This document shows positions 1,084 to 34,811 of a stretch of DNA of 41,194 bases, one piece after another; within the stretch, counting starts at the first letter, position 1, and every line of letters starts with the position of its first letter. The stretch spans positions 1 through 41,194 of the forward strand of contig NZ_LASA01000089.1 of assembly GCF_001562015.1 (NCBI RefSeq). The letters run 5' to 3'. The position numbers and the translations under genes were made by a program. Below the pieces are notes generated by a model. That model ran no database searches. It was given only the letters and a program-made list of their open reading frames with translations, and was not told the origin of the DNA. The stretch comes from Endozoicomonas arenosclerae (GTDB taxonomy: Bacteria > Pseudomonadota > Gammaproteobacteria > Pseudomonadales > Endozoicomonadaceae).

Positions 1084-1962
1084 ATGCTGAAAGACAACAC
1101 ATACCTTGAGACCCTCTATGATGGCTACGGCCAGAGCTTTTCCGTAGACGAGATGCTGTTCGAGCAGAAAACCGAACATCAGCATCTGGTCATTTTCAAC
1201 AACAAAATGTTTGGCCGCATGATGGCACTGGACGGTGTCATCCAGACCACTGAAAAAGATGAGTTCATCTATCACGAGATGATGACTCATGTACCGATTC
1301 TGACTCACGGCAATGCCAAGCGTGTTCTGATCATTGGTGGTGGTGACGGTGGCATCCTGCGTGAGGTGCTGAAGCACAAGAATGTTGAACACGTCACCAT
1401 GGTGGAAATTGATGGTGCCGTCGTCGATATGTGCAAAAAATGGCTGCCCAACCACTCTGCCGGTGCTTATGAAGACCCTCGCGCTAACCTCGTAATCGAC
1501 GATGGCATCAACTTTGTCAGCGACAGCGAGAAGACTCCGGATGGCAGCTTTGACGTCATTATTTCTGACTGCACAGACCCCATTGGTCCCGGTGAAGTCC
1601 TGTTCTCATCGGACTTCTACGCAGGCTGCAAACGTCTGCTGAAAGATGGCGGTATCTTCGTAGCCCAAAATGGCGTCTGCTTCATGCAGCTGGATGAAGT
1701 TGAGACCACCACACGCCGTCTTGGTCACTATATGGAAGACTGCTACTTCTACAGTGCAGCCGTTCCTACCTATGTTGGCGGCATCATGACCTTTGCCTGG
1801 GGGTCAGATAACCCACAAGCACGTAATGTTTCGCTGGAAACGGTGACTGATCGTTTTGAAGCTTGTGGTATTGAAACCCGTTATTACACACCCGCTATCC
1901 ACAAGGCAGCCTTTGCTCTGCCCAGATACGTAGAAAAGGCGATACAGAAGGTCAATGACTAA
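1084..1962 (+). CDS. speE: Spermidine synthase
   Basis: A 292-residue cytosolic aminopropyltransferase that moves the aminopropyl group of decarboxylated S-adenosylmethionine to putrescine. The sequence follows E. coli SpeE along its whole length. The dcSAM-binding glycine-rich motif [14 protein letters not shown] is present, as are the acidic VEID strand end, the IDDG segment and the catalytic-loop sequence [12 protein letters not shown], with [14 protein letters not shown] near the end. I chose the ATG at 1084 because AGAAGGA lies just upstream and because homology begins there; a TTG at 1054 in the same frame would add ten unlikely residues. The gene is first in the operon and overlaps speA by 8 bases, so the two are probably translationally coupled. 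Confidence 0.95.
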
Positions 1963-3904
1963 TCCTTTATCCGGTGAACCGTTGATTGAAAGTGGCTGGA
2001 GCGTTGAAGAATCACGTTCCACCTACAATGCCCGCTACTGGAGCCAGGGCTATTTCGATATCAACGACAATGGCGAAGTAGTTTACTTGCCCAAGGGCAG
2101 GCCTGCTGTCAGCCTGAACAATATTGCCGCCCAACTGGTTCGCAAGGGTGCCTCTCTGCCTGTTCTGGTTCGATTCCCGGAAATTCTTCACGACCGGGTT
2201 AATACTCTGTGTGATGCCTTTAACCAGGCCATTGGTGAGTACGGTTACCGCAATGATTATCTGGCGGTATACCCCATCAAGGTTAATCAGCAAAGAGCCG
2301 TGGTTGAAGAGATCCTTGAGAGTCAGGCGGCCAGACAGGATCGTCAGCTGGGACTGGAAGCAGGCAGTAAGCCAGAACTGCTGGCTGTATTGGCTATGGC
2401 CAACAGAGCCAGTTCCGTCATTGTCTGCAACGGCTACAAGGACAGGGAATACATTCGTCTGGCCCTGATCGGTGAAAAACTAGGACATCAGGTTTATATT
2501 GTTCTGGAAAAAATCACCGAACTGGAAATGATCCTGAAGGAAGCCGATGAACTGGGCGTCAAACCCAGATTAGGCCTAAGAGTCAGACTCGCTTCCCAGG
2601 GTAAAGGCAAATGGCAGGCCAGTGGTGGTGAAAAATCCAAGTTTGGTCTGTCCGCCAGCCAGGTTCTGAATGTCATCAACCGGCTCAAAGACAGTGGCAA
2701 TATGGACTGTCTGCAGCTGCTGCATTTCCATCTGGGTTCCCAGATGTCGAATATTCGCGATATCCGCAAGGGCATCAGCGAGTGTGCGCGTGTTTATGCT
2801 GAGCTTTATCGACTGGGTGCACCTATTCACTGCCTGGACGTGGGCGGTGGTCTGGCTGTTGATTACGAAGGTACTCGCAGCCAAAGCACCTGCTCCATGA
2901 ATTACAGTCTTCAGGAATATGCGAACAATATCGTTTATACCCTGGGCGACCTGTGCGCTGAACAGGAAATTCCTGTTCCAAGAATTATTTCCGAGTCCGG
3001 TAGAAATCTGACGGCTCACCATGCGGTACTGATCACTGATGTAGTCGGTGTTGAGAGTTATGAGCCAGAAGAGCCAGAAGCTCCCAGTAAAGACGCACCA
3101 CAACTTCAGCACAACATGTGGCGTTCCTGGCAGGACCTGGTGAAAGGCGTTGAACAGAGAGCCCTGGTTGAACTGTTCCACGACACACAAAGCGACCTTT
3201 CTGAAGTGCACACCCAGTTCGGGATGGGACTGCTGGATCTGGAACAAAGAGCCTGGGCAGAAAGCATAAACCTGCGCATCTGCTATGAGCTGTCCAAGAG
3301 GTTGTCTCACAAGAATCGGTCTCACAGACCGCTGATTGATGAGCTAAGTGAAAAGCTGGCGGACAAGTTCTATGTGAATTTCTCTCTGTTCCAGTCGTTG
3401 CCTGATGCCTGGGGTATTGATCAGGTGTTCCCGGTGCTGCCTCTCTCTGGATTGAATCGTCCACCCGAGAAGCGTGCTGTCATGCTGGATATTACCTGTG
3501 ACTCCGATGGCACTATTGATCAATATGTTGATGGGCAAGGTATAGAAACCACACTGCCGGTGCCTGAATGGCATCCGGACAAGCCCTACATGATTGGTAT
3601 TTTCCTGGTGGGTGCATATCAGGAAATTCTTGGTGATATGCACAACCTGTTTGGCGACACCGACACTGTATCCGTCCGTGTTACCGACCTGGGACTGCTT
3701 GAAATATTTGATTTCCAGTCCGGTGATACCGTTGAAGATGTTTTGAGGTACGTGAATCTGAAACCGGAAAGCTTTCTGCACACCTACCAAAAGCTGGTGG
3801 AGGAGTATCTGCCAGAATCCAGCCGCGCAACTGTGCTGGAAGAACTGGAAGCAGGCCTGAAGGGCTACACCTACCTTGAACACCTGGGAGGAAATGAGCT
3901 GTGA
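1955..3904 (+). CDS. speA: Biosynthetic arginine decarboxylase
   Basis: A 649-residue PLP enzyme that converts arginine to agmatine and CO2 (E. coli SpeA has 658 residues). The PLP-binding lysine is K109 in VYPIKVNQ. Other fold III decarboxylase signatures are [10 protein letters not shown], the glycine-rich phosphate loop [20 protein letters not shown], and the C-terminal [11 protein letters not shown] with the catalytic cysteine. The N-terminal [23 protein letters not shown] segment is typical of the SpeA branch rather than ornithine decarboxylase. The ATG overlaps the end of speE, and the stop codon overlaps the start of the next gene as TGATG. Together with speB downstream it defines the agmatine route to putrescine. 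Confidence 0.96.
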
Positions 3905-4833
3905 TGTTCTTCGAAGGCTCTGAGAAAAAAGTGGAAGTCATTACAGCGGCTGAAGCGGGTTCCCTGCGTGGGCTGGGTAAAGACTTCTGGTCAGGGGTTG
4001 TGGCCAAGGCTCAGGCTGAAATCCTGACCACACTCAGCAATGATTATTGCGACGCTTACCTGCTATCCGAGTCCAGCCTGTTTGTCTGGGAAGATCGTTT
4101 TCTGATGCTGACCTGCGGTACAACCACCCTGGCCGATGCATTCCTGTATTTCCTCGATCACGTGGCCGATGAGCATATTCTGTTTGCCAGCTTCCAGCGC
4201 AAGAACGAATATCAGTCACATCTGCAGAAAACGTCTTTTGAAGAAGATATCAACCGCATCCAGTCCGAGCTCAAGGGCACGGCATTCCGCCTCGGCAGTC
4301 TGGATAGCCACCACAACTATATCTTCCATCTGGATCGTCCTTATACGCCCGAGGTGGATGATCAGACCAGCGAACTGTTGATGTATCATATCAAGGGCGA
4401 AGGGGCTCAATATCTGCGCAGTGAAGGTCAAACCATTGAAGGTATACGCAAGTTGCTGAGGCTGGACGAGATACTACCCGGCTTTGAGTTGAGTGACTGG
4501 CTGTTTGAGCCTTTTGGTTATTCTCTGAATGCCATCAAGGGTGACCGTTACGCCACCTTCCATATCACACCTCAGGAAGAGAGCTCTTATGTGAGTTTTG
4601 AAACCAACCTGAATATGGAAGACACCGCCATTCTGGAAAAACTGCTGGAAGCTCTGCGTCCGGGCAGTTGGGACCTGATTGGCTTTAATGCACCCGCACC
4701 GCTGCGGGAAAATGGCGAATTCAGTTGTCTGACAGAGTGCCTTCTGCCTCTCAAGTGTGGTTATGATATGAGTTTCAATCATTACCAGCACAAAGAGCAG
4801 CGCCCGGTACAAGCCGTGGAACTGACAGGATAA
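3904..4833 (+). CDS. speD: S-adenosylmethionine decarboxylase proenzyme, eukaryotic type
   Basis: The product makes decarboxylated SAM, the aminopropyl donor for SpeE, using a self-generated pyruvoyl group. It does not resemble E. coli SpeD or the short Bacillus/archaeal form, but matches human AMD1. FFEGSEK (residues 2-8) matches human [15 protein letters not shown] contains the self-cleavage Glu56-Ser57 pair, TCGTT the catalytic Cys71, GYSLN Ser207, and FHITP His220; SYVSFETNL is identical to the human block. The spacing Ser57-Cys71 equals human Ser68-Cys82. Differences are one residue fewer between Ser207 and His220, and Gln224 where human has Glu247, a substrate-ribose contact as I recall. 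Length is 309, against 334 in human. ATG 3904 overlaps the speA stop; GTG 3901 is an alternative at better distance from GGGAGG. The symbol denotes function, not homology to E. coli speD. Confidence 0.93.
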
Positions 4834-4837
4834 GATC

Positions 4838-5764
4838 ATGACTACGCTGACAAAAAGGGAAGACCATTCCCTCTACGCCAATGCCTTTGGCTTTCTGCGA
4901 CAGCCTCTGGATTTTGATCCTGCACAGTCCAGTGCTGACGTCATCATTACCGGCATCCCTTTTGACCTGGCTACAACAGGTCGCAGTGGCAGTCGCTTTG
5001 GCCCTGAAGCCATTCGAAAAGCTTCTGTGAATCTGGCCTGGGAGGGCAAACGCTGGCCCTGGTTTTTCAATCTGAAAGATCACCTCTCTGTGGCTGACTG
5101 TGGCGACCTGGTGTTTGAATGCGGCAACGCTCAGGATATGAGCGATACCCTGTTCAAACACGCTGACCAGCTACTGGCTGCAGGCAAAAAGATGCTGACT
5201 TTTGGCGGAGACCACTTCGTAACCCTGCCATTGCTTAGAGCCCATGCAAAACATCATGGTCCTCTGGCACTGGTGCACTTTGATGCTCATACCGACGACT
5301 ATGATCTGGGCGGCAAGTTCGACCACGGAACCATGTTTCATCATGCTCAGGTTGAAGGGTTAATTGACGCCTCCGCTTCAACCCAGATTGGCATTCGTAC
5401 CACTTACGACCACAAGAACACGCCTTTTAATGTTCTTGATGCCAGCTACGTGAACAGTGGCCGGGTGGAAGAGATTGTCAGGAAAATACACGATACAGTG
5501 GGTAATCGCCGTGTTTATCTGACCTTTGATATCGACTGCCTGGACCCAGCCTATGCACCGGGTACAGGAACGCCTGTTTGTGGCGGACTGACCTCGGACA
5601 GAGCTCTGCACTTGCTGAGAGGCTTAAAGGGTCTGGATATTGTCGGAATGGACGTCGTTGAAGTCGCACCGGCTTATGATCATGCCGATATCACCGCTCT
5701 GGCTGGCGCCACTATTGCTCTTGAGATGCTTTACCTTCAGGCATCAAAATTAAAAGCTATCTGA
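4838..5764 (+). CDS. speB: Agmatinase (agmatine ureohydrolase)
   Basis: A 308-residue member of the arginase/agmatinase family, predicted to hydrolyse agmatine to putrescine and urea in the cytosol. The dimanganese ligands are visible: GGDHF (His126), DAHTDDYD (Asp149, His151, Asp153) and [16 protein letters not shown] (Asp231, Asp233). The gene starts 4 bases after the speD stop with AGGATAAG as ribosome-binding site. It closes a four-gene operon that leads from arginine through agmatine and putrescine to spermidine. Arginase or another ureohydrolase is possible from sequence alone, but the adjacent speA makes agmatinase much the best reading. Confidence 0.93.
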
Positions 5765-5880: not shown

Positions 5881-5905
5881 GGCTCTGTTCAAACTAAATG
5901 TTGTT
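5881..5905 (+). repeat. Left terminal inverted repeat of the IS1595-like element
   Basis: A 25-bp repeat with 24 matches to the reverse complement of 6977-7001. The transposase stop codon (5889-5891) lies inside it. Confidence 0.88.
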
Positions 5906-6920
5906 TTGCCCAGCGTATAGAAATTTGATCTAAAAAGCTTTCTTCTGAGAATGTCAGAGTCTTTTCCCGAGTCTTAAGATATCGCTTCCAGCCTAGGTAT
6001 CGAGAAAGGTATTTCGTTGCCACTCCCTTGAAAAAACCATTGATCCAGCGTTTCAGTTCACTGTGATAAGCATTCACCGTCTGGATATGAAAAATGCCTT
6101 CCTTGACGTACTGACCCGCATTGGTCACCAGTGTTTTTACGGTGACATTCAGCTTCTCTGCCAGACTATCGTGTGACATGTGACCATCAAGACACATCGT
6201 ACTGCCTGCCTGGACTCTGCCGCTTAGATGTGAAGTCAGTTCCTCAGTGCAGACGTGCTTAAGAACAGCGTCGACAACATGGTGGTTCCGGTCACAGGCC
6301 ACCATCACAGGAATTTTCTTAACGGGAGCTGCTGACCCATCTTGAACTCCGGCCAGTTTTTTTCTGGCACTCATGCCGCCACGCTTGCGGGCAGGAACCT
6401 CAAGCTTTCGCTGCCCCTTGTGTGATTCGCGGAAAAAGGTTTCATCTTCTTCCAGAATGCCTGAGAGCTGTCCGTAGGCATCGGACTCAACCACCGCCAT
6501 CAAACGGTGCCGTAAATGAAAAGATGTGTTCAATGAAACACCGCACTTGGCTGCTGCGGGACGCAGCGTAGTGCTTCCATCCATACACTCAAGATACTGA
6601 TCCAGTTTATCTCTGACGCGCAGGTGAGCCAGAGGGGACTTGGTCAGGGCATTGAAGGTACGTTGACACTGCTTGCAGCGATAGCGTTGGTGCCCGGCAT
6701 GGACTCCCCAACGCTTGACTGACTCAGAGTGACAATGGGGGCAAACGGGATTCTGGTCAAAGTAATACTTGAGTCTTTCCAGCAGACGGGATTGACCTGA
6801 CACCTCCTGCTTATCATAAGAATCGAGTGGCGGCGAAAGCGTTTTATGAAGGATGGTAATCTGCTCAGGAGACATTACGGGTATAGACTGCAGAACGTCT
6901 TGAAACTGTTCGGATTGCAT
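5889..6920 (-). CDS. IS1595-family (ISXO2-like) transposase
   Basis: The product has an N-terminal zinc ribbon of the form CPHC...CKQC (Cys60, 63, 82, 85) that is typical of IS1595 transposases, followed by a DDE/DDN-type catalytic domain. Visible catalytic-region motifs are EEDETFF, a central MVACDRNHHVVDAV, CLDGHMSHD, and VNAYHSELKRWINGFFKGVA, with the family ending KYLSRYLGWKRYL. The third acidic position appears to be Asn, as in other IS1595 members. I prefer the ATG at 6920 because GGAG lies 8 bases upstream and a TATACT element at 6963-6968 would place transcription start close to the earlier ATG at 6953, which has no ribosome-binding site. The frame is intact, so the element may be active. 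Confidence 0.9.
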   Translation of the reverse strand: MQSEQFQDVLQSIPVMSPEQITILHKTLSPPLDSYDKQEVSGQSRLLERLKYYFDQNPVCPHCHSESVKRWGVHAGHQRYRCKQCQRTFNALTKSPLAHLRVRDKLDQYLECMDGSTTLRPAAAKCGVSLNTSFHLRHRLMAVVESDAYGQLSGILEEDETFFRESHKGQRKLEVPARKRGGMSARKKLAGVQDGSAAPVKKIPVMVACDRNHHVVDAVLKHVCTEELTSHLSGRVQAGSTMCLDGHMSHDSLAEKLNVTVKTLVTNAGQYVKEGIFHIQTVNAYHSELKRWINGFFKGVATKYLSRYLGWKRYLKTREKTLTFSEESFLDQISIRWAKQHLV

Positions 6921-6976
6921 GGCCGGAACTCCACATCGCACGACAAATTTCATGCTTTTGCAGTATAGATCATATT

Positions 6977-30239: not shown

Positions 30240-33200
30240 TCAAACATCAGTCACAGCTGGGAACCTTTTCTCTAAATCAATCAAAATCTGCTCACCAAAA
30301 ATCCTGATTAAAGCGTTAGCCAGACTTTCTACTCCCATCGCATCAATGAATTGAGCCAATAAATTAGCCACTCTTTGTTCCAGAGCAGTGGGTTCCAGTG
30401 CCGAACTTTCTGCAGAAGGAAGAGTGAGAGCAAAGACTTTTAGATCTTCTTCAAACTCCTTATAGTCTCCACCAAAATCCGTTTCAATATAGTGACTGAT
30501 CAGACTAATAAATTGTTCATCTTGTGAATAAGCGGAGAGATACGCTCGCACCCTCTGACTTTGTAAGGCAGAAGCTCTTGATCTCTGTAGTAGCTGCAAT
30601 TCAGGCTGACTATCACGCCTTCTATGATCAATTCGATGCCTTGTCGTCTCAGGAGCACTTAATGTGTGCTCATGGAAACCTACTGGACCCCGTCGGCTTT
30701 CAGGCACTGAAAGTTGGGTATGAAAACCAGGATTAGGAAAAGGTAATAGATTTCCCGGAGAGGTTTCTGAATCGAGCAACCCCATTAACTCTCTGCTGCC
30801 ATGTTGACCGTTAGAGTTTTGATCCGAGTCAGGTGACGAAACCAGTATGTCAGGGGGCGATACCGAACCGGCAGGATAGTCAGTTAATCGATCATTTGCT
30901 CGACCTCGTGAGTAATCCCTCATAGTGCCATCCCTGCTAAATTCTCTGAGCCCATTCATGCTTGAATCCAGGTCAGGCCGGCTAATAGCTCTCCACATTT
31001 TGCCCAGCCAGGCTGGTGGCCTCAGATAGTCAGAAACTCTTCTATTGGGACTGGAAGACGGAGATGAATCTTGCGACGATTTAACTCCCAGCTTATTAAT
31101 GGCGCCTTCAGAGCCGTATTTCGCGTTTCTTCTCAAACCATGCCTTCTTTGTCCTTCAGAAGTTCGTCTTTGTCGGGTATCCAGCAGATTTTCCTGACTC
31201 CTGGATTCCTCGTGATCCAAAGCGGAGGGATCCGATGGATCACTTAAACGCCGTGTCTCTTCCTGCGATAGTTGACTGAGTTTTTCTGTGACCGTTAAGG
31301 TGGCATGGCTCACCATCATTTTGACCGACTCAAACAGGTGATTGAGATTGTCTCGTGCCAACTCTGGTAAAGCTCTGGCCTGTTTGTATAAAGCCCCTCT
31401 GATATCAACGTCGTATGATATAGCTTCCAGTTCTTCTGATGCCTGAAGATAACGAACTCTTTCCCTCTCGAGTTCTTCTTCTGTTTGTCGAGAAACTGAT
31501 TTCATTCTCGCCAACTGTCTTTCCAGCTCTATTAAGCGCGCCCTGTAGTGCTCGGCTTGCTGATGAACCAGGGCATACTCCCTGGCAGCGAGAGACTCGG
31601 GTACAAAACGTTTTACTGTACTTTCAAAGTGCTTCTTTTCTGCATCCAGAAGCTTTTTGTATTCCCATTCAACACTGGCCATAATATTTTCAAGCCGCTT
31701 GTAATGCTCCTGAAATCTGGACCAGCTTCTTAAATTTGCCTGCTCTATCTCAATCATTTGAGCATTGATATCCTGCCACATCTTATCAATGGCTTTAGCT
31801 CTCTCCTCAGACCATTCGACTGTTTTTTCACTCTGAGCCAAATCCCGATCAAAACGTTTTTGGAGGTCTCCCGATTTTTTATCACTGGCTCCTACCCGAC
31901 TGATCATTCTCTCTCTGAAATTCGAAGTGCGCTCTTTCACCTTTCTTTCCAGCTCTTCACGGCCCTCTTCAAGCGCATCATCCCGGACATGGCCTCTAAA
32001 GCTAAAACCACTGTATTCAAGCTTTAGCTGCTGACCTGTAATCTGGAATTCATACTCCATAGTGACGGTAAACATTCCATCCAGCTGCTTCTTGCTATCA
32101 GGTACCACCCAGGTATCAAATTCTTTATGAAAGATCAGTTTTAACCGTCCACTTGAGGTCAGCTCGACCAATACTGGTGTTGCCGAATCAATAGTATCCT
32201 CCCGGTTGGATGGGCTGATCATCCATCCTCCAGGCATCAGGAAATCCAGAAGATTATCCCGCCCCAATAAACGGTCAGTTCCGAAAACGGCGCCTCTGAG
32301 CGAGTTGGGAGAATCCTGATTCAGAACCATATAGAGAAGGACTTCCAGACCAGGCAACTGAGGGTCAAGAATTTCAGGCAATTCACAAACATTAGCCACT
32401 CTGGCAGCTGTCTCTATTCCAGCACTCACAGCCGACTCAGCTCGTAGCTGGGCAATCTGTCTATCAAGCTGTAGTCTTCTGTCTCCTGATGCCCTGTTTC
32501 TTTCAGCTTCCAGTTCAGTAATATCGACCTTTGGAAAACGCTTTCTGACATCCCTTATCAGACTGGCAGTATTCCCCAAGCTATAACTTTCGGCTTCCTC
32601 TCCCTCTGTAAGATATCTGAAAATGATCGGCAGTCGCTGACCGTCTCTCGCACACTGTTCTCGCCATCGACGAATCTCCTCCTCAGAAAAAGAAAGCCTT
32701 TCCGATTCGGTCAGAGACAGTATCCGGGTATGCAACTCAAGTCGTTTAAGCCGCTCTCTTAGCAAGCCCATAAAGGGTGATTGTTCATTGTAAATGACGC
32801 TATTGTGGGAAAAGCTTACAACCAGATCGGTTGAGTGCTGAGGGCTGGGTACTGAGATCTGTAGGTCCTGCCTTCCCATATTCAAATCTGCAGCCATACT
32901 TAGCATCTGCTCAGCATCCTGCTCTGTGAACAGCTTCATCACTTCCCGGGTTAAATAGGCATAACGACCATAATCCAGAATCAGTTTGACCAGCTCATCC
33001 AGTCCAATGGTTTCCCAGTCTTGCTGGAGATGACTGTAGGCTTTTTCCTCTTTGAAGAGCTTGATCAGACTCTCACGAAGCGCTATTTGTTTTTGCTCGA
33101 AGTTCTCAATACCTGTTCCGAGGATGGACAAGAGGCTGGCTATAAACTCTTCCTGATTACCTTCTTTAACCAGATGGTAACTGGAAAAAAGATCTGCAAG

Positions 33201-34811
33201 AAAAGATGTGTGTAAAGGATTCTGAATCAGAAAACCGTCATGACCTGTGGTGGATAGTTCTTCCGTGGTCCCGTCTCCATTCGGATCCTGATTGCCATCA
33301 GAAGCATGATCATTACTCCCTGTGTTATTCGGATCGGAATCAGGCTGCTCTTCTTCCCCTTCATCTTCATCATCATCACTGCTCGGGGGTGGCGTTGGGG
33401 AAGTCTTTTCTTTTCCATCCATATCAACGGGCTCTTCGTCAAAATCCGCAAGATCTGCGGTCAAAACATCTAGCCTGTTGGAAAGAATCTTTCTCAGTGT
33501 TTTCTCCCAGTATGAAGAAGTACCTTCCAGAGCCATTAGACGCTCAAGAACATCCCGCTTTTTCTTTTCTATATACTTTCTTCGCTCCTCAAGGGTCATT
33601 CCCTGCATGCGGATATGTTCTTCCAGCGCATCCACTTCTTCCTGTACTTTTTCTTCAATAGCAGGACGGAACGTTTCTAGCTCCGCCATATAAGCCTGCA
33701 TGAGTCCCCATTTCAGTTTTCTGCCAGAGATGTTTGGAGTCAGATATCGCAGTCTCGCCAGTATCTCTCCACCCAGTGATTGAGGCCGGCTACTAACAGG
33801 AGCGGACTGGTTTAGAGCTCTCTCAGTTTGTACTCTCTGGAGTTCATCAAGATCAGCCAGTATTAAAAGAATAATTTCTCTGAAAACGACAGCCGCTGGA
33901 GTATTCGCCACAGAGTCCAGAAGCCCATTCTGCTCAAGCCTATCCAGATAGTCCCTCAAGAGGTTCCGATAATGCATGAGTTCGCCAAGAGTCATATTCT
34001 CCATATCGGAGAGATCAAGACCTACCTCTGTCAAACCTGAGTCACCCACCAGTGAAAGCAGGTCGAGCACTTCTATCAGAACAGCTTGAATCTGTGCATT
34101 ATGGGTAAAATCAATAACGGATAGTTCTGGGGGAAGGTTTTCAACTACCGGAGCAGCAGGTTGATAGAGTTCATCATTGCCAAGGAAAATGTCGGGATCT
34201 GGAGTAGCCACAGAAGCCCCTGGCAGACCGGGAATAAATACCCTTCGCCCCGGCATCATTTCCTTCATGATATCCTGTTTTTTCAGGATCTCTTCCGGGC
34301 TTTTGGGGAAACCTCTGCCACTCCATTTTCTAGGATCGTATTTTATAGAGTTACTCGATAAAGCGGAGCTTCCAGCTTGAGACCAGTCACTGATAACCTT
34401 AAGAAATCTGAGAGTAAAAGGTAATTTAACAAGCTCGTAGAGCCATTGAGAAACATTACCCGAGAAGCTCGTTACTTCCAGAGCAATGAAAGCCTTGAAA
34501 TGAAAAACATAATCCGACTGTTGAGTTGCAAGCCCAGTTCGACATTCTGCAAAAAGGTTTTTCGAAATCGGAAAGAACATCTCATCCTCTGAGCTGACTT
34601 CACTTTCGGATTCATTACTCAGCGCTTCTGATTCTATAACAGCCTCTTTAACTGCAACCAGATCACAGGCGTAAGTGCTTTGAACCTCTCCTTCCCCAAG
34701 GCTGATTTCAACATAGCTGGACTCTGTATTATTTATGCTGCTCATGAGGGTGGCAGGCAGAGCAGTACATCCCAGTAAACCCAGCTTTATCCATAAAATT
34801 CGTGGCGTCAT
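30240..34811 (-). CDS. Unrecognised 1523-residue exported coiled-coil protein
   Basis: I recognise no known family. Residues 1-25 look like a signal sequence (KLGLLGCTALPA); LLGC could be an imperfect lipobox at Cys15. Residues 225-450 are helical and charged. A low-complexity acidic linker (about 457-520, DDDEDEGEEE) follows, then another helical part. Residues about 810-940 look like a beta-rich domain (for example GRLKLIFHKEFDTWVV and FTVTMEYEFQI). A long coiled coil runs 945-1190, a Ser/Pro/Arg-rich probably disordered tail 1190-1415, and a helical C-terminus 1420-1523. No repeats, transmembrane barrel or toxin motif is evident. It stands alone, convergent to trkH and divergent from glyQ, in a place where related genomes have no such gene as far as I remember. 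A surface or host-directed role is possible but unproven. Confidence 0.75.
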   Translation of the reverse strand: MTPRILWIKLGLLGCTALPATLMSSINNTESSYVEISLGEGEVQSTYACDLVAVKEAVIESEALSNESESEVSSEDEMFFPISKNLFAECRTGLATQQSDYVFHFKAFIALEVTSFSGNVSQWLYELVKLPFTLRFLKVISDWSQAGSSALSSNSIKYDPRKWSGRGFPKSPEEILKKQDIMKEMMPGRRVFIPGLPGASVATPDPDIFLGNDELYQPAAPVVENLPPELSVIDFTHNAQIQAVLIEVLDLLSLVGDSGLTEVGLDLSDMENMTLGELMHYRNLLRDYLDRLEQNGLLDSVANTPAAVVFREIILLILADLDELQRVQTERALNQSAPVSSRPQSLGGEILARLRYLTPNISGRKLKWGLMQAYMAELETFRPAIEEKVQEEVDALEEHIRMQGMTLEERRKYIEKKKRDVLERLMALEGTSSYWEKTLRKILSNRLDVLTADLADFDEEPVDMDGKEKTSPTPPPSSDDDEDEGEEEQPDSDPNNTGSNDHASDGNQDPNGDGTTEELSTTGHDGFLIQNPLHTSFLADLFSSYHLVKEGNQEEFIASLLSILGTGIENFEQKQIALRESLIKLFKEEKAYSHLQQDWETIGLDELVKLILDYGRYAYLTREVMKLFTEQDAEQMLSMAADLNMGRQDLQISVPSPQHSTDLVVSFSHNSVIYNEQSPFMGLLRERLKRLELHTRILSLTESERLSFSEEEIRRWREQCARDGQRLPIIFRYLTEGEEAESYSLGNTASLIRDVRKRFPKVDITELEAERNRASGDRRLQLDRQIAQLRAESAVSAGIETAARVANVCELPEILDPQLPGLEVLLYMVLNQDSPNSLRGAVFGTDRLLGRDNLLDFLMPGGWMISPSNREDTIDSATPVLVELTSSGRLKLIFHKEFDTWVVPDSKKQLDGMFTVTMEYEFQITGQQLKLEYSGFSFRGHVRDDALEEGREELERKVKERTSNFRERMISRVGASDKKSGDLQKRFDRDLAQSEKTVEWSEERAKAIDKMWQDINAQMIEIEQANLRSWSRFQEHYKRLENIMASVEWEYKKLLDAEKKHFESTVKRFVPESLAAREYALVHQQAEHYRARLIELERQLARMKSVSRQTEEELERERVRYLQASEELEAISYDVDIRGALYKQARALPELARDNLNHLFESVKMMVSHATLTVTEKLSQLSQEETRRLSDPSDPSALDHEESRSQENLLDTRQRRTSEGQRRHGLRRNAKYGSEGAINKLGVKSSQDSSPSSSPNRRVSDYLRPPAWLGKMWRAISRPDLDSSMNGLREFSRDGTMRDYSRGRANDRLTDYPAGSVSPPDILVSSPDSDQNSNGQHGSRELMGLLDSETSPGNLLPFPNPGFHTQLSVPESRRGPVGFHEHTLSAPETTRHRIDHRRRDSQPELQLLQRSRASALQSQRVRAYLSAYSQDEQFISLISHYIETDFGGDYKEFEEDLKVFALTLPSAESSALEPTALEQRVANLLAQFIDAMGVESLANALIRIFGEQILIDLEKRFPAVTDV

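What the first reader, a model, noticed from the sequence alone, without database searches (positions are those of the whole stretch)
3904..4833. Eukaryotic-type SAM decarboxylase inside a bacterial polyamine operon
The sequence shows human AMD1-like blocks (FFEGxEK, LSESS self-cleavage site, TCGTT, GYSx[14 protein letters not shown]). Bacteria usually carry the unrelated-looking short SpeD or E. coli-type SpeD. The gene is embedded between speA and speB with overlapping or 4-base junctions, so it works in the bacterial pathway. I infer gene transfer from a eukaryote or an old bacterial branch of this family; I recall scattered bacterial members but cannot check their number.
Basis: partly seen in the sequence, partly recalled or inferred. 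Interest (0 to 1): 0.72.

Follow-up and report, generated by a model that had tools for sequence, protein, structure and literature searches.

The report
Eukaryote-type SAM decarboxylase in bacterial operon
This marine bacterium appears to make spermidine with the human-type form of a key enzyme in place of the usual bacterial one; the enzyme type is already known in some bacteria, and here it looks like part of an old, widespread bacterial branch rather than a fresh gift from a eukaryote.

Summary
Window 3904-4833 (+) encodes a 309-aa class 2 ("eukaryotic") S-adenosylmethionine decarboxylase: PF01536 177.9 bits, cut-off 22.2; predicted fold matches human AMD1, TM 0.86/0.85. Self-cleavage site and checked catalytic residues are kept. 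It lies in a tight speE-speA-SAMDC-speB operon, most likely of an Endozoicomonas; its genome has no class 1 SpeD match. It most likely supplies decarboxylated AdoMet to SpeE for spermidine (inferred). Bacterial class 2 enzymes are already in print (PMC10407285, citing Li 2019): a member of a known kind. What the tools add is breadth: 67 of 290 genomes of the Bdellovibrio phylum, 60 of 295 of the Shewanella order, 10 of 10 of the own genus, largely excluding class 1 SpeD. In the best trees the window's clade lies among Bdellovibrionota sequences, not beside the three eukaryotes, and its SpeE has another history. But an AU test does not reject a direct eukaryote link (p 0.141) and the root is unknown, so transfer from a eukaryote is neither shown nor excluded. 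Open: whether eukaryotic AMD1 itself came from bacteria.

The parts
1084..1962 (+). speE, spermidine synthase (ATG 1084 after AGGA; the ORF list's TTG 1054 seems less likely)
   Evidence: TIGR00417 358.4 bits, PRK00811 397.6 bits (scanned from 1054); sequence; SpeE tree: groups with gammaproteobacterial SpeE
1955..3904 (+). speA, biosynthetic arginine decarboxylase
   Evidence: PRK05354 883.8 bits, TIGR01273 851 bits
3904..4833 (+). class 2 (eukaryotic-type) S-adenosylmethionine decarboxylase proenzyme, 309 aa
   Evidence: PF01536 177.9 bits; human AMD1 E 1.6e-34; AlphaFold2 pLDDT 91.9, TM 0.86/0.85 to human 1jl0
3904..4071 (+). predicted beta chain, residues 1-56, ending LSE
   Evidence: alignment with human E67/S68; cleavage inferred, not shown
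4072..4830 (+). predicted alpha chain, residues 57-309; Ser57 (codon 4072-4074) would become the pyruvoyl group
   Evidence: Ser57 in 81 of 81 rows, window included, and in 148 of 148 distinct bacterial rows
4573..4575 (+). codon of Gln224, at the place of human Glu247 (substrate-binding)
   Evidence: Q in 77 of 81 distinct long-form gammaproteobacterial rows (window included), 24 of 40 Bdellovibrionota rows, 0 of 17 short forms
4838..5764 (+). speB, agmatinase
   Evidence: PRK02190 464.0 bits, TIGR01230 295 bits

Best explanation
The gene is a working class 2 AdoMet decarboxylase that stands in for the usual class 1 SpeD, most likely in an Endozoicomonas. Proposed mechanism: the proenzyme cuts itself between Glu56 and Ser57; Ser57 becomes a pyruvoyl group; the enzyme decarboxylates AdoMet; SpeE of the same operon transfers the aminopropyl group to putrescine, which SpeA and SpeB make from arginine through agmatine; the product is spermidine. 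Because the human putrescine-site residues (E15, D174, T176, E178, E256) are kept while K80 is not, I expect some putrescine stimulation (weak inference). Evolution (inference): this lineage most likely took the single gene from another bacterium, of a Bdellovibrionota-like branch, into an existing gammaproteobacterial spe operon. Shown here: family, predicted fold, operon, absence of a class 1 SpeD match, distribution, tree shape. Inferred: cleavage, activity, regulation, direction of transfer.
For: PF01536 177.9 bits against 22.2; no PF02675 match in the protein. Predicted structure pLDDT 91.9, best PDB match human AMD1. E67, S68, C82, S229, H243 equivalents kept in 148 of 148 distinct bacterial rows. 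Sole AdoMet decarboxylase found: 1 PF01536 and 0 PF02675 in the own genome, with PF02675 found in 8 of 14 control genomes. Canonical SpeE in the same operon; the only other synthase-domain match in the own genome is weak (23 bits). PF02675 absent from 47 of 49 other class 2 genomes; in 290 Bdellovibrio-phylum genomes the two families co-occur in 7 against 29.8 expected, Fisher p 2.3e-11, relatedness not corrected. In that phylum speE lies directly downstream of the class 2 gene in 37 of 40 loci examined. Tree without the short form, rooted on eukaryotes: the window's clade is nested through starred branches 97/84, 97/88, 98/93 and 99/98, with one unstarred (90/41) between them. Window SpeE groups with Shewanella, Grimontia and Ferrimonas SpeE, apart from Bdellovibrionota SpeE (100/100).
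Against: No biochemistry. The protein scores 131.6 against the TIGR00535 equivalog cut-off of 233.15; the 10 other bacterial members tried also stay below it (best 188.9). Human E247, a substrate-binding residue, is Gln; K80 is Leu. AU tests do not reject eukaryotes beside the window's clade (p 0.141), human inside bacteria (p 0.371) or eukaryotes with the short form (p 0.28). Only three eukaryotes were used, all on long branches; no outgroup could be used.
Confidence: 0.83

Rival explanations
1. Direct transfer from a eukaryote into the gammaproteobacterial lineage, as the first reader proposed and as is published in general form for bacterial class 2 genes.
For: PMC10407285 (passage read) states that phylogenetic analysis indicates bacterial class 2 genes came from a eukaryotic source, citing Li 2019. 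AU does not reject eukaryotes next to the window's clade (p 0.141).
Against: The best trees put supported Bdellovibrionota branches between eukaryotes and the window's clade; the bacterial family is deep and broad; the three eukaryotes form one side of a branch, 99/95.
Confidence: 0.22
2. The enzyme serves a polyamine-independent path: decarboxylated AdoMet for a membrane-protein/spermidine-synthase-like fusion in a DUF350 operon, as I recall from the abstract of Li 2019.
For: 16 of 50 class 2 genomes (Shewanella, Parashewanella, Paraferrimonas) have no canonical SpeE but a synthase domain in a frame of 578-620 aa; one such region read here holds DUF350, that frame, DUF2170 and PspA (Pfam names only the synthase half, the membrane-like half is by eye).
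Against: The window's genome has canonical SpeE overlapping speA, and no second strong synthase frame (its only other hit scores 23 bits).
Confidence: 0.06
3. The enzyme has a changed substrate (arginine or ornithine), as class 1b homologues did (SpeDA, SpeDC).
For: Such changes are widespread in class 1b (PMC10407285, abstract and passages); E247 is replaced by Gln.
Against: It is the only AdoMet decarboxylase candidate and lies beside a canonical SpeE; arginine decarboxylase is already in the operon; the other AdoMet-site residues F7, L65, E67, F223 are kept in the window.
Confidence: 0.04

Closest known systems
Human AMD1 / class 2 AdoMet decarboxylase (PF01536; PDB 1msv, 1jl0)
   Same: Two-domain predicted fold, E-S cleavage motif, catalytic Ser, Cys, Ser and His, putrescine-site residues; 34% identity over 259 aligned positions
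   Different: 309 aa against 334 for the human chain 1jl0; Gln for Glu247, Leu for Lys80; below the TIGR00535 cut-off
Bacterial class 2 AdoMet decarboxylases (Li et al. 2019, Biochem J; not held; cited in PMC10407285)
   Same: Same family, in bacteria
   Different: I could not read which bacteria that paper covers; the passages seen in the two held papers that use the class 2 name (listed) do not mention this operon or a Bdellovibrionota branch
Class 1a/1b SpeD (PF02675)
   Same: Same reaction (established knowledge); related domain fold (2iii, 1vr7)
   Different: No PF02675 match in this protein or genome

Membership tests
Class 2 AdoMet decarboxylase (PF01536) | Profile score above the curated cut-off | tested here: met
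   177.9 bits against 22.2
Class 2 AdoMet decarboxylase (PF01536) | Fused two-domain fold | tested here: met
   Predicted model only, TM 0.86/0.85 to human
Class 2 AdoMet decarboxylase (PF01536) | Glu-Ser self-cleavage site and catalytic Cys82, Ser229, His243 | tested here: met
   E56, S57, C71, S207, H220; the roles of Cys82, Ser229 and His243 are recalled
Class 2 AdoMet decarboxylase (PF01536) | Pyruvoyl formation and AdoMet decarboxylase activity | not testable with these tools
   needs expression
TIGR00535 equivalog (adenosylmethionine decarboxylase as NCBI defines it) | Score at or above 233.15 bits | tested here: not met
   131.6 bits; not filed under this equivalog
Human-type substrate site | Glu at position 247 | tested here: not met
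   Gln224 in the window; Glu in human, Arabidopsis, potato, T. brucei rows
Class 1 SpeD (PF02675) | Profile match | tested here: not met
   no match at E 0.001 in the protein or the genome

The most novel reading that the evidence does not exclude
Class 2 AdoMet decarboxylase is not a eukaryotic invention that leaked into bacteria but an old bacterial enzyme, most diverse here in Bdellovibrionota as a class 2-speE pair; the eukaryotic AMD1 gene descends from that bacterial branch. The best unrooted tree puts eukaryotes among Bdellovibrionota rows (84/87), but the root is not known.
Probability: 0.25. Interest if true: 0.72.

Novelty: new member of a known kind. Interest (0 to 1): 0.36.

Why it matters
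The gene itself is one more bacterial class 2 enzyme. What would matter is the wider family: the printed view (PMC10407285, passages) is that class 2 appears to be a eukaryotic invention and that bacteria took it from eukaryotes. A deep bacterial branch with a stable class 2-speE pair makes the opposite direction testable, and bears on where an essential eukaryotic enzyme came from. It also gives a natural series (Glu or Gln at 247, K80 lost, putrescine site kept or lost) for studying how putrescine control arose.

Tried and rejected
Rooting with class 1b: hhalign of six class 1b sequences against class 2 groups, and of N against C halves, gave probabilities of at most 21% and no usable ranking. 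PF02675 frames of about 260-300 aa in Bdellovibrionota looked like possible two-domain intermediates; 20 were fetched and read, and by eye they are E. coli-like class 1a SpeD. Viral, phage and plasmid carriers: no match (a pattern scan with this one protein, so near relatives only, tblastn); the library of viral structures gave no full-length match (TM by query length at most 0.27 in the rows shown). My first one-clade test of gammaproteobacterial rows left out four such rows that lie inside, so I set it aside and repeated it with all 32 (p 3.5e-5). Contamination as the source of the window gene: rejected, 10 of 10 genomes of the genus carry it. No Rfam hit and no tRNA in the window; promoter-like and terminator-like sites were no more than in shuffles.

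Full report
What is there. It matches Pfam PF01536 at 177.9 bits against a cut-off of 22.2 and no other Pfam family at E 0.001. Among solved structures it matches human, T. brucei and potato AdoMet decarboxylase. NCBIfam TIGR00535 matches at 131.6 bits, below its equivalog cut-off of 233.15; ten other bacterial members tried also stay below it (best 188.9).

Operon. speE (1084-1962), speA (1955-3904), SAMDC (3904-4833) and speB (4838-5764) follow on one strand with overlaps of 8 and 1 bases and a 4-base gap; the partners pass NCBIfam cut-offs. Of the 80 loci fetched, 17 have all three partners nearby, 62 have speA, 34 have speE and 11 have none (tblastn hits above 100 bits, up to 6 kb each side; some loci are cut by contig ends).

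Fold and residues. AlphaFold2 with an alignment of 34 sequences gave pLDDT 91.9. Foldseek's best match is human AMD1 (1jl0, TM 0.86/0.85, 30% identity); class 1b SpeD (2iii, 1vr7) also matches over about 120 residues. The residue counts use an alignment of 157 rows, 153 bacterial and 4 eukaryotic; five bacterial rows are second copies of another row, leaving 148 distinct. Residues at human E67, S68, C82, S229 and H243 are the same in all 148. The putrescine-site residues E15, D174, T176, E178 and E256 are all kept in the window and mostly in long forms (for example D174 in 64 of 81 long gammaproteobacterial and 38 of 40 Bdellovibrionota rows); the short forms mostly lose 174, 176 and 178. T. 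brucei differs at 176 and 178 and the plants at 174. K80 is hydrophobic in all 148 bacterial rows and in T. brucei. E247 is Gln in the window, in 77 of 81 long gammaproteobacterial rows and in 24 of 40 Bdellovibrionota rows, and Glu in 17 of 17 short forms. E247 as a substrate-binding residue is from passages of PMC3686867; D174 and E15 in the putrescine site from passages of PMC5201418; the other roles are recalled. PDB titles name D174N, E178Q and E256Q mutants, with and without putrescine.

Has it replaced SpeD? The own genome has one PF01536 and no PF02675 match (PF02675 rings in 8 of 14 control genomes). I could give 50 of the 80 loci; 49 of their genomes were held; 47 of 49 lack PF02675. 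One exception, G564, has a 542-aa protein with a C-terminal SpeD domain; the other, G601, has a SpeD domain joined to membrane-like segments (Pfam names only the SpeD part). In 290 genomes of the Bdellovibrio phylum PF01536 occurs in 67 (two of them, G850 and G884, only as short pieces), PF02675 in 129, both in 7 (29.8 expected; Fisher p 2.3e-11; relatedness not corrected). Six of those 7 have PF02675 frames of 352-386 aa; two of the six were read (L213, L214) and both join a SpeD domain to membrane-like segments.

Distribution. PF01536 is in 10 of 10 genomes of the genus, 5 of 194 of the order, 1 of 369 of the class (the own genome), 10 of 398 of the phylum (7 of 213 genera), 60 of 295 of the order of Shewanella frigidimarina (two of them with stop codons inside), 67 of 290 of the Bdellovibrio phylum and 2 of 5 of the phylum of a Myxococcales MAG; the own genome or the centre genome is counted each time. 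The 1 of 369 and the 10 of 398 are both even samples and differ; eight of the ten are the own genome's class fellows, so the class sample probably missed the positive families. None was found in viral contigs, plasmids or phages. In the Bdellovibrio phylum speE lies directly downstream on the same strand in 37 of the 40 loci examined (40 of the 67 positive genomes: the tool's best 20 and 20 that I picked); two of the three misses are short loci that end at the gene.

Two uses. Of 50 class 2 genomes including the own one, 34 have a canonical SpeE (199 bits or more with PF01564); 16, all Shewanella, Parashewanella or Paraferrimonas, have a synthase domain only in frames of 578-620 aa at about 105-122 bits, besides weaker hits. 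One such region holds DUF350, that frame, DUF2170 and PspA, which fits the polyamine-independent role that I recall from Li 2019. The window's genome is of the canonical kind.

Trees. 91 of 157 rows (bacterial redundancy cut at 68% identity, potato left out) gave a tree in which human, Arabidopsis and T. brucei form one side of a branch (99/95) attached among Bdellovibrionota (84/87), and the window lies in a 22-row clade (98/98) within a 31-row clade (98/96) that has Bdellovibrionota rows at its base. Without the short form and L138 (77 rows, rooted on eukaryotes) the window's clade is nested in Bdellovibrionota through four starred branches (97/84, 97/88, 98/93, 99/98) with one unstarred (90/41) between them. 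Long-form gammaproteobacterial rows are not one clade (AU p 3.5e-5), so at least two acquisitions are likely: the Colwellia type and the Endozoicomonas-Shewanella type. Bdellovibrionota as one side of a branch is rejected (p 0.0017). Against my reading: AU does not reject eukaryotes beside the window's 29-row clade (p 0.141), human inside bacteria (p 0.371), or eukaryotes with the short form (p 0.28). The eukaryotic rows are few and long-branched.

SpeE tree. In 51 rows (those of the 91 with a SpeE in the DNA held, and the window) Colwellia-type SpeE falls among Bdellovibrionota SpeE, while the window's SpeE groups with Shewanella, Grimontia and Ferrimonas SpeE behind a long branch (100/100; its bootstrap had not settled). 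So the Colwellia type seems to have taken the decarboxylase-speE pair, and the window's lineage the decarboxylase alone, put into an existing operon (inference).

What is known. PMC10407285 (passages) says that some bacteria encode class 2 AdoMetDC, acquired from a eukaryotic source (citing Li 2019, Biochem J 476:2579), and that class 2 appears to be a eukaryotic invention. Li 2019 is not held; I recall its abstract as reporting functional bacterial class 2 enzymes of limited distribution. The listings for the class 2 name (2 papers), for AdoMetDC with Bdellovibrio (no listed paper holds both terms; 0 papers) and for Endozoicomonas with polyamines showed no title or abstract start on this operon; the library lacks most subscription papers, so this does not show that it is unpublished. 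Also seen as passages only: PMC9992855, PMC12803844, PMC12467396, PMC11107197.

Verdict. A real class 2 enzyme in a bacterial operon, a new member of a known kind. The eukaryote-donor story is not shown for this gene; an inter-bacterial route is better supported but not proven. The family-wide question of direction is the interesting part.

Noticed in passing
L228:1401-3026 (+), genome of L002, Endozoicomonas sp. ISHI1: A 542-aa protein with a secretion-signal-like start (by eye), a long part that I did not search and a C-terminal class 1b-like SpeD domain (PF02675 123 bits; read), in a genome whose polyamine operon uses class 2.
   Followed up: partly
L114-L130 (256-288-aa class 2 forms): A short class 2 subfamily in the Shewanella order that mostly lacks D174, T176 and E178, with no spe gene matched in the flanks held (up to 3 kb). 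In one search, L114, L116 and L120 follow a similar membrane protein (PF07885 ion channel in L114 and L120); L126, L128 and L130 lie by signalling-like genes (by eye). Function unknown.
   Followed up: partly
L213, L214 (Bdellovibrio-phylum genomes): Frames of about 360 aa joining a class 1b-like SpeD domain to membrane-like segments (by eye like the first half of the Shewanella synthase fusion in L223), in genomes that also hold class 2.
   Followed up: partly
L040 and L103: Class 2 genes of Myxococcales-like genomes fall inside the mainly gammaproteobacterial 22-row clade: a later transfer or, for the MAG, contamination.
   Followed up: no
L008: Titled Salinisphaera sp. G21_0, but its SAMDC and SpeE pair with the window's; the name may be wrong.
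   Followed up: no
window 5889-6953 (-): IS1595-type transposase (PF12762 58.8 bits), convergent with the operon, its end 124 bases after speB.
   Followed up: no
window 30240-34811 (-): A 1523-aa frame without any Pfam match at E 0.001.
   Followed up: no
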